Below, piece after piece: positions 11,773-12,244 of a stretch of DNA of 26,630 nucleotides. The position numbers were made by a program, and so were the translations under genes. The stretch is from Eudoraea sp. Lineage in GTDB: Bacteria; Bacteroidota; Bacteroidia; Flavobacteriales; Flavobacteriaceae. The notes beneath the pieces were generated by a model, which saw nothing but the letters and a program-made list of their open reading frames with translations, was not told the DNA's origin and ran no database searches. Positions within the stretch are counted from its first letter, which is position 1; the number at the start of each line of letters is the position of its first letter. The stretch spans positions 1-26,630 of the forward strand of contig JABDQS010000087.1 in the NCBI GenBank assembly GCA_013042125.1, in the 5' to 3' direction.

Positions 11773-11809
11773 CAGAACAAGTGCTAAAATTTGTGCACTT
11801 GAGAATATT

Positions 11810-11842
11810 AAAAAACCGCCAAGTTTGCTTGAGTGGTTTTTT
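11810..11842 (+). terminator. Terminator-like hairpin, unit 1 (likely tRNA-Ala terminator)
   Basis: A run of A pairs with a run of T around the stem CCGC-CAAG with CTTG-(A)-GTGG, loop TTTG. A11832 is bulged. It lies 38 nt after the tRNA and is well placed to end its transcript. Confidence 0.7.
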
Positions 11843-11882
11843 TATTCTTAAGTGCGTGGCCTGAAAGGCCTAAGAACCAAAT

Positions 11883-11940
11883 TTTTGCATTTGCAAAACT
11901 TGATTTACCTGAGCAGCAAAGCTACTCCGGTATTCTCCAC
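11883..11940. repeat. Array unit 1: conserved block ending in a copy of the tRNA 3' end
   Basis: The block TTTTGCATTTGC... is followed by GAGCAGC-AAA-GCTACTC and then by ACTCCGGTATTCTCCAC (11924-11940). These last 17 bases are identical to 11757-11773, the T-arm and acceptor end of tRNA-Ala plus one base beyond. Confidence 0.75.
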
Positions 11941-11975
11941 GATTAAGCGCAATTAGAATTGCAATTAAAAATAAA

Positions 11976-12008
11976 AAAAGCTCATCAAATTTATTTGAAT
12001 GGGCTTTT
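11976..12008 (+). terminator. Terminator-like hairpin, unit 2
   Basis: An A-run, then GCTCAT-CAAAT with ATTTG-(A)-ATGGGC and TTTT. A11998 is bulged, near the junction of lower and upper stems as in units 1 and 3, although the stem sequence is quite different. Confidence 0.55.
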
Positions 12009-12043
12009 GCGTTTTTAAGTGCCTGTGACTGCAAGTCACAGCT

Positions 12044-12101
12044 AATTGCATTTGCAGGACTGGATACACTCCGGAGCAGCGTCAGCTACTCCGATCGTCC
12101 C
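12044..12101. repeat. Array unit 2: conserved 50-bp block with decayed tRNA end
   Basis: Bases 12044-12093 match 12185-12234 of unit 3 at 48 of 50 positions. The palindrome GGAGCAGC-GTCA-GCTACTCC is inside. After CTCCG the tRNA-like end is degenerate (ATCGTCCCA instead of GTATTCTCCA). Confidence 0.75.
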
Positions 12102-12108
12102 ATTATAG

Positions 12109-12140
12109 AAAAACTGCCGAGTTTACTCGAGCAGTTTTTT
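12109..12140 (+). terminator. Terminator-like hairpin, unit 3
   Basis: AAAAA, then CTGC-CGAG with CTCG-(A)-GCAG, loop TTTA, then TTTTTT. A12130 is bulged. Several base pairs differ from unit 1 by changes on both arms. Confidence 0.65.
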
Positions 12141-12184
12141 GTTTTTTGAAGCCTCAATGCCGCAGGTATTGCCTACGTGATGAA

Positions 12185-12244
12185 AATTGCATTTACAGGA
12201 CTGGATACACTCAGGAGCAGCGTCAGCTACTCCGGTATTCACCA
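12185..12244. repeat. Array unit 3: conserved 50-bp block with near-intact tRNA end
   Basis: It is nearly identical to the unit 2 block, then ACTCCGGTATTC-ACCA (12229-12244), which matches the tRNA-Ala 3' end at 15 of 16 positions. It ends 29 bp before the stop of the stress-protein gene on the other strand. Confidence 0.75.

What the first reader, a model, noticed from the sequence alone, without database searches (positions are those of the whole stretch)
11773..12244. Regularly spaced, three-unit structured noncoding array after tRNA-Ala
Four CTCCG junctions, one in the tRNA and three downstream, are spaced 167, 164 and 141 bp. Every unit has the same order of parts: terminator-like hairpin, variable stem, GCATTTGCAGGACTGG-like block, GAGCAGC/GCTACTCC palindrome and tRNA 3' end. 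Units 2 and 3 share 48 of 50 bases in the core, while the flanks have drifted. I know no named element with this layout. It could be repeated duplication of a tRNA plus spacer with tRNA decay, a REP-like element, or a processed RNA array.
Basis: partly seen in the sequence, partly recalled or inferred. Interest (0 to 1): 0.78.

Follow-up and report, generated by a model that had tools for sequence, protein, structure and literature searches.

The report
Palindromic mini-elements parked behind tRNA genes
A row of three short, hairpin-rich DNA units after an alanine tRNA gene belongs to a family of small elements that sit behind tRNA and tmRNA genes in many flavobacteria, each matched to its own RNA gene and probably spread with the help of small GIY-YIG DNA-cutting enzymes.

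Summary
The array is real: three units follow tRNA-Ala(GGC), with the reported spacings and parts. It is not private to this window. A model of the core matches 141 of 299 genomes of the same family. In 85 of 105 loci examined a tRNA or tmRNA gene lies within 700 nt upstream on the same strand (13 gene types), in 72 of them 95-125 nt away.

P4, the palindrome of each unit, is a T-arm-like hairpin whose 3' side copies the unit's own RNA gene from A58; the T-loop letters before A58 are never kept (0 of 72). This copy and a long inverted repeat match the own gene, not others (0 of 10,000 and 0 of 5,000 permutations). A relative has the empty site.

Three loci carry a one-domain GIY-YIG nuclease gene directly before the core. 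Two sets of GIY-YIG loci have an RNA gene in 9 of 29 and 17 of 30, against 0 of 30 uvrC loci.

Best reading: non-autonomous mobile elements of a GIY-YIG-linked family targeting tRNA arms. Movement and cutting are inferred.

The parts
11699..11773 (+). tRNA-Ala(GGC); the block copied in the units runs from A58 of the T loop to the 3' end (11757-11773)
   Evidence: A58 read from the sequence
11774..11939 (+). unit 1 (variable hairpin GGCCTGAAAGGCC)
11778..11793 (+). P1 5' strand, CAAGTGCTAAAATTTG, in the tRNA trailer; can pair with 11878-11893
   Evidence: sequence; P1 test
11810..11843 (+). terminator-like hairpin with A and T tracts, unit 1
11858..11870 (+). variable hairpin P3, unit 1
11878..11893 (+). 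P1' ending in the conserved ATTTG, unit 1
11908..11930 (+). P4 palindrome of unit 1: a T-arm-like hairpin with a replaced loop
11924..11940 (+). copy of the tRNA 3' end (A58 onward), unit 1, identical to the tRNA
11940..12103 (+). unit 2; P1 5' strand about 11943-11956, terminator-like hairpin about 11973-12009, P3 12023-12041, core 12050-12064, P4 12072-12093, decayed tRNA copy 12088-12103
12104..12244 (+). unit 3; terminator-like hairpin about 12109-12141, P3 12155-12171, P1'-like segment 12179-12195, core 12191-12205, P4 12214-12233, tRNA copy 12229-12244
12245..12270 (.). flank that follows the tRNA directly in the relative without the array (empty site)

Best explanation
The array is three tandem copies of a non-autonomous mobile element of about 140-170 bp. 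Shown: the element lies behind tRNA or tmRNA genes; its right end is a T-arm-like palindrome (P4) whose 3' half copies the host gene's own 3' end from A58, while the loop letters before A58 are replaced; it carries a terminator-like hairpin; its inverted repeat P1/P1' matches its own trailer better than those of other genes; the same locus without the array exists in a relative; and relatives of the element hold a one-domain GIY-YIG nuclease gene next to the core. Inferred: a GIY-YIG enzyme acting in trans nicks or cuts the T arm of an unoccupied gene, and host recombination copies the element in. The element supplies an intact gene 3' end and a new terminator, so the RNA gene stays usable; the replaced loop and trailer would make the occupied site a poor target. 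P1 and P4 probably act as DNA hairpins. Copies then multiply by unequal recombination between the repeated cores and tRNA ends.
For: Family-wide core: 141 of 299 family genomes at E<=0.01. In 85 of 105 loci a tRNA/tmRNA gene lies within 700 nt upstream, in 72 it is 95-125 nt away, over 13 gene types. Copy positions 59-63 agree with the own gene in 307 of 360 cells; permutations mean 240, maximum 265, 0 of 10,000 reach it; with one locus per gene type, 0.0004 of draws. P1/P1' duplex with own partner -15.98 kcal/mol, with other gene types -8.12; 0 of 5,000 permutations as good. P4: 50 cells changed on both sides against 17.3 (sd 3.6) in shuffles. T-loop letters kept in 0 of 72. At the orthologous locus the core is found in 11 of 34 loci with the tRNA and 0 of 46 without (Fisher 2.7e-5). 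Empty site in G004. GIY-YIG ORFs (Pfam PF01541) directly before the core in L146, L166 and L187. GIY-YIG loci with an RNA gene inside the fetched locus (about 3 kb): 9 of 29 and 17 of 30, against 0 of 30 for uvrC. At the very same tRNA-Ala in L281 and L325, GIY-YIG genes are bracketed by tRNA-half copies with a replaced hairpin. T6 SegB, a GIY-YIG homing enzyme, drives tandem amplification of a tRNA locus (PMC13096335; passages and section 10).
Against: The window's units carry no ORF of 100 aa or more, and only three clear core-plus-GIY-YIG loci (plus L336 with a weak 14.6-bit core) were seen. Of the five other loci in the L187 clade, L333, L335 and L337 have no core match at E<=0.05. By eye, most GIY-YIG copies near tRNAs have anticodon-arm rather than T-arm junctions. 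A test for partial tRNA copies near GIY-YIG genes was not significant: 7 of 26 against 2 of 23 controls, p=0.15, although both control hits proved to contain GIY-YIG genes. Cores at different genes of one genome (0.676) are hardly more alike than unrelated pairs (0.669), while same-gene cores in different genera reach 0.718, so there is no sign of recent jumps between genes. Two of five covariation measures do not stand out (70 and 45 of 500 shuffles). The loci are related, so permutation odds are optimistic. No cutting or movement was observed.
Confidence: 0.5

Rival explanations
1. A structured RNA made by read-through of the tRNA transcript and cut out by tRNA-processing enzymes, like the rtT RNA reported (recalled) for E. 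coli tyrT.
For: Near-constant position behind tRNA/tmRNA genes, covarying hairpins, P1 pairs with the trailer, layout like the recalled tyrT repeats.
Against: A terminator-like hairpin precedes every core in the window. Well-formed P4 hairpins show no G-U excess on the forward strand (16 G.T, 17 A.C; over all 147 hairpins 44 against 31). In the array region only tRNA reaches an Rfam cut-off.
Confidence: 0.2
2. Worn attachment sites: tyrosine-integrase islands that used the tRNA 3' end entered in series and were lost, leaving tRNA-end repeats.
For: Direct repeats of the tRNA 3' end at tRNA and tmRNA genes; other genes follow the array in G001 (C213), G003 and G006.
Against: A conserved core and matched inverted repeats at 13 gene types are not expected of random relics. 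No ORF of 100 aa or more lies in the window's array. The usp-side flank in G003 shows no clear tRNA-end copy by eye.
Confidence: 0.15
3. Local duplication of tRNA plus spacer with decay, no mobile element.
For: Tandem units with tRNA ends; unit numbers 0 to 4 within the genus.
Against: The core is not tRNA sequence and recurs in many genera behind unrelated RNA genes.
Confidence: 0.07
4. Host-serving insulators: stacked terminators and hairpins kept by selection to stop transcription between the tRNA and the converging usp gene.
For: In the genus, 8 of 10 pairs of the terminator hairpin have a change on both sides in at least one unit; usp faces the array.
Against: Does not explain the gene-matched P4 arm or P1; G004 has no unit at the same locus.
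Confidence: 0.08

Closest known systems
Free-standing GIY-YIG homing endonucleases tied to tRNA genes (phage T4/T6 SegB)
   Same: GIY-YIG nuclease linked to tRNA genes; in T6 it drives tandem amplification of a tRNA segment (PMC13096335, passages and section 10)
   Different: SegB is phage-borne; no palindromic core, loop-replaced tRNA copies or non-autonomous arrays are mentioned in the parts I read
E. coli tyrT repeats / rtT RNA (Rfam RtT; recalled)
   Same: tandem repeats of about 178 bp behind a tRNA, each with the tRNA 3' end (recalled; no paper seen)
   Different: no RtT match in the array region; here the family spans 13 gene types with matched arms
REP/REPIN elements with RAYT transposases
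   Same: short palindromic elements, thought non-autonomous, linked to a small nuclease or transposase (listings and abstract starts)
   Different: here behind tRNA/tmRNA genes and linked to GIY-YIG enzymes
tRNA-targeting integrative elements (attL/attR)
   Same: regenerated tRNA plus a partial tRNA copy (PMC9897764, passages)
   Different: window units of 141-167 bp without an ORF of 100 aa; T-loop letters replaced in the copy
UPF0213 GIY-YIG proteins
   Same: nearest solved structures by sequence of the L187 ORF: 1zg2, E=4.5e-8; 1ywl, E=7.7e-5
   Different: both are labelled hypothetical, so this comparison gives no function

Membership tests
GIY-YIG homing element | carries a GIY-YIG nuclease gene | tested here: not met
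   no ORF of 100 aa or more in the window's array; met in relatives L146, L166, L187
GIY-YIG homing element | occupied and empty alleles of the same site | tested here: met
   between species: G004 empty, others 1-4 units; 11 of 34 tRNA-bearing orthologous loci hold a core
GIY-YIG homing element | nuclease cuts the empty site | not testable with these tools
   needs protein and a cleavage assay
Rfam RtT / tyrT repeat | match to the RtT covariance model | tested here: not met
   scan at gathering score and scan of the array up to E=1 list no RtT match
Rfam RtT / tyrT repeat | tandem units each holding the tRNA 3' end (definition recalled) | tested here: met
   the copy of unit 2 is decayed
Tyrosine-integrase attachment site | direct repeats of the tRNA 3' end | tested here: met
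Tyrosine-integrase attachment site | integrase gene inside the element | tested here: not met
   no ORF of 100 aa or more in the array
REP/REPIN | RAYT-type transposase and GTAG tag | not tested
   no search for RAYT genes was run
Integron attC | attC consensus boxes and IntI | not tested
   considered from the hairpin layout only
Structured cis-RNA | covarying helices | tested here: met
   (three of five measures exceed all 500 shuffles; two do not)
Structured cis-RNA | strand-specific G-U wobble signature | tested here: inconclusive
   16 G.T against 17 A.C in 129 well-formed hairpins, 44 against 31 in all 147; the central C.A column was left out of both

The most novel reading that the evidence does not exclude
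A new kind of minimal mobile element: small GIY-YIG enzymes and their palindromic, gene-matched passengers home to stem-loops of tRNA and tmRNA genes (T arm or anticodon arm), rebuild the RNA gene, and leave a copied half whose loop is swapped, with nuclease-free passengers piling up in arrays.
Probability: 0.35. Interest if true: 0.85.

Novelty: new variant of a known kind. Interest (0 to 1): 0.7.

Why it matters
It would explain repeated structure, absent from Rfam, behind tRNA and tmRNA genes of many flavobacteria, and give a role to their small GIY-YIG proteins. It offers a clear test of whether a one-domain nuclease can drive insertion at tRNA arms, and a natural set of sites in which target, copy and swapped loop can all be read from sequence.

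Tried and rejected
Rfam at gathering score gave only tRNA in the window and only tRNA, tmRNA and rRNA in 20 loci; up to E=1 the array region gave, besides tRNA, five matches all below their cut-offs. A first idea, that the units are decayed tRNAs whose variable hairpins are anticodon arms, was dropped: the hairpin varies freely and the core is not tRNA. A second idea, that the segment before P4 is an inverted copy of the whole acceptor end, was dropped: its GGA-like letters are shared by all gene types, so only the P4 arm is gene-matched. The usp-side flank of G003 showed no clear tRNA-end copy. A promoter-like reading of ATTTGCAG (the recalled flavobacterial -7 box) was not tested. The 358-aa ORF inside a 1.37-kb unit of G034 has no Pfam match.

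Literature: ten searches ran; no listed title or abstract start describes this family. Four of them returned no paper at all, so their terms may have been too narrow, and only part of the longer lists was shown. Only PMC13096335 (passages, section 10) and PMC9897764 (passages) were opened; all others were seen as listings.

Biases and dropped rows: R1 and R2 were built from hits that include letters of the tRNA copy and sequences of this genus, and loci were picked by score; several of the 11 occupied orthologous loci are on contigs that gave sequences to R2. Weak hits outside the family (19 genomes, best 1.6e-5) were not inspected. In one search, 20 GIY-YIG loci were picked partly because hits were tandem, and part of the output was cut from view. 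In one search L231 (uvrC) was left out of the first set, and the second set was drawn by similarity to the tmRNA-linked L187 ORF, so it is not a neutral sample. One search used 72 of 105 loci: those with an RNA gene 95-125 nt upstream. One search looked at 12 loci without an upstream gene; its automatic comparison found a close copy of the 3' arm (17 of 18) only in L171, so the other remnants are judged by eye.

Full report
What is there. tRNA-Ala(GGC) (11699-11773) is followed by three units with start-to-start spacings of 167, 164 and 141. Each unit holds a terminator-like hairpin, a variable hairpin, a conserved block (like ATTTGCAGGAC.GGA), a palindrome (P4) and a copy of the tRNA 3' end, decayed in unit 2. 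The copy starts at A58 of the T loop. P4 therefore looks like a T arm in which T54-G57 have been replaced by other letters. A 16-nt segment of the tRNA trailer (CAAGTGCTAAAATTTG) can pair with the segment that ends in ATTTG in unit 1 (read).

Same locus in relatives. In the genus the tRNA lies beside the SDR gene, with 0 units (G004), 1 (G002, G003 and two loci of G001), 2 (G007), at least 2 at a contig end (G005), 3 if the ends of two contigs overlap (G008) and 4 (G006). A usp gene follows the array directly in some (for example G002, G007 and C158 of G001); other genes follow it in C213 of G001, in G003 and in G006. By eye, three unit types, told apart by the variable hairpin, occur in different orders. 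In G004 the tRNA runs straight into the flank that follows unit 3 in the window: an empty site. Among 80 loci found through the neighbouring SDR gene, 34 have the tRNA in the fetched stretch (24 of 60, 10 of 20); the core occurs in 11 of the 34 and in 0 of the 46 without it (Fisher 2.7e-5).

A family behind many RNA genes. A model of the 59-column core (R1) matched 32 of 199 genomes of the family. A broader model of 39 sequences (R2) matched 141 of 299 at E<=0.01. In a phylum-wide sample it matched 34 of 296, 15 of them in the same family; the 19 others were weak (best 1.6e-5) and were not inspected. I examined 105 loci with cores. In 85, a tRNA or tmRNA gene lies within 700 nt upstream on the same strand: tmRNA 25, Val(gac) 17, Ala(ggc) 16, Arg 15 (four anticodons), Val(tac) 3, Ser 3, Phe 3 and one each of Ala(tgc), Pro and Leu. 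Of the other 20, seven start at a contig end and one has tmRNA 987 nt upstream. Of the remaining 12, nine show by eye a tRNA/tmRNA 3'-end remnant upstream and three (L047, L161, L169) do not; the automatic comparison found a close copy only in L171. The tmRNA genes of 12 loci are confirmed by Rfam. In 43 of 105 loci two or more cores were found.

Matching to the own RNA gene. For the 72 first units lying 95-125 nt behind an RNA gene, positions 59-63 of the copy agree with the own gene in 307 of 360 cells; over 10,000 reassignments the mean is 240 and the maximum 265. With one locus per gene type (13 types) the reassigned score reaches the own score in 0.0004 of draws. P1 and P1' pair at -15.98 kcal/mol with their own partner and at -8.12 with partners from other gene types; none of 5,000 permutations is as good. 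The loci are related, so these odds are optimistic. The T-loop letters are retained in 0 of 72. In P4, 50 cells change on both sides against 17.3 (sd 3.6) in shuffles, and one inner pair is A-U 15, C-G 10, G-C 9, U-A 1; the number of pairs with such a change (70 of 500 shuffles) and of pair types (45 of 500) do not stand out. In the genus, 8 of 10 pairs of the terminator-like hairpin change on both sides in at least one unit.

DNA or RNA. Among 129 well-formed P4 hairpins, forward-strand G.T and A.C mismatches are about equal (16 and 17); over all 147 distinct hairpins they are 44 and 31. An RNA read from one strand would favour G-U on that strand. The central column, left out of these counts, is C.A in 101 of 147, which on the other strand would read as G.U. 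P1 helices carry 36 G.T and 42 C.A, mostly the conserved ends. Together with a terminator-like hairpin before each core of the window this leans towards pairing in DNA, but it does not exclude an RNA.

Link to GIY-YIG nucleases. Three long units after tmRNA (L146, L166, L187) and one after tRNA-Arg (L163) hold an ORF of 81-82 aa (in L163 counted from an inner ATG) with the GIY-YIG domain (E 1.4e-13 to 5.3e-16); in the first three the ORF lies directly before the core. In a search of 149 genomes with the L187 ORF, its own locus and the five next best relatives all lie downstream of tmRNA; of these five, cores were found in L334 and, weakly, in L336. RNA genes are found in 9 of 29 loci of best GIY-YIG matches, in 17 of 30 loci related to L187, and in 0 of 30 uvrC loci. 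Several of these genes are bracketed by copies of a tRNA half whose anticodon region has been swapped for another palindrome (by eye). At the very tRNA-Ala of this window, L281 (a Flavobacteriales MAG) and L325 ([Muricauda] okinawensis) carry such a GIY-YIG gene. In M. jejuensis (L237, L240) and M. marianensis (L245) tRNA-Arg genes have a GIY-YIG gene upstream and cores downstream. Against this, a test for partial tRNA copies gave 7 of 26 for GIY-YIG loci and 2 of 23 for controls (p=0.15); the two control hits are L281 and L325.

Age and movement. Cores at the same gene type in different genera are 0.718 identical on average, at different genes of one genome 0.676 and unrelated 0.669. Lineages thus tend to follow the gene type; recent jumps between genes were not seen. 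Near-identical neighbours in some arrays (for example L083 and L080) fit local duplication.

Mechanism. I take the array as non-autonomous members of a GIY-YIG-linked element family that inserts at arms of tRNA and tmRNA genes. The position, gene matching, loop replacement, empty site and nearby nuclease genes are shown. The cut, copying by recombination, protection by the swapped loop, and growth by unequal recombination are inferred. A published parallel is T6 SegB, a GIY-YIG homing enzyme needed for tandem amplification of a tRNA segment (PMC13096335, passages and section 10).

Verdict. No Rfam family other than tRNA, tmRNA and rRNA reached its cut-off in the stretches scanned, and ten searches of the held literature listed no description of it, several of them with narrow terms.

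Noticed in passing
L232, L233, L234, L235, L236, L239, L250, L281, L325: One-domain GIY-YIG genes, some in tandem, bracketed by copies of a tRNA half in which an arm is replaced by a palindrome such as CCCGATAGCTATCGGG; in L237 the copy also takes in the tRNA's 5' flank.
   Followed up: partly
L086:1432-2853: A 1.37-kb unit behind tRNA-Ala in G034 has both element ends and a 358-aa ORF without Pfam match, as if it carried cargo.
   Followed up: partly
L033, L034, L038: In G001 (C213), G003 and G006 other genes follow the array (a 572-aa protein that looks like a permease, a 333-aa ORF that looks like a nitroreductase; names by eye, not searched).
   Followed up: partly
L083 and L080: Arrays of 8 and 9 cores behind tRNA-Val(gac); in L080 the repeat unit is only 69 nt.
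   Followed up: partly
L160:1027-1525: Behind tRNA-Ala in G283 several bare P4 hairpins (GGGATCAACGCAGTTAATCC) repeat without the upstream core.
   Followed up: no
L046:1400-1556: In G033 a unit lies inside an rRNA operon, between tRNA-Ala(TGC) and the 23S gene.
   Followed up: no
G503:C1:2840696-2840748 and G505:C1:2131727-2131781: Two weak core matches outside the family (E 1.6e-5 and 5.7e-5) were not inspected.
   Followed up: no
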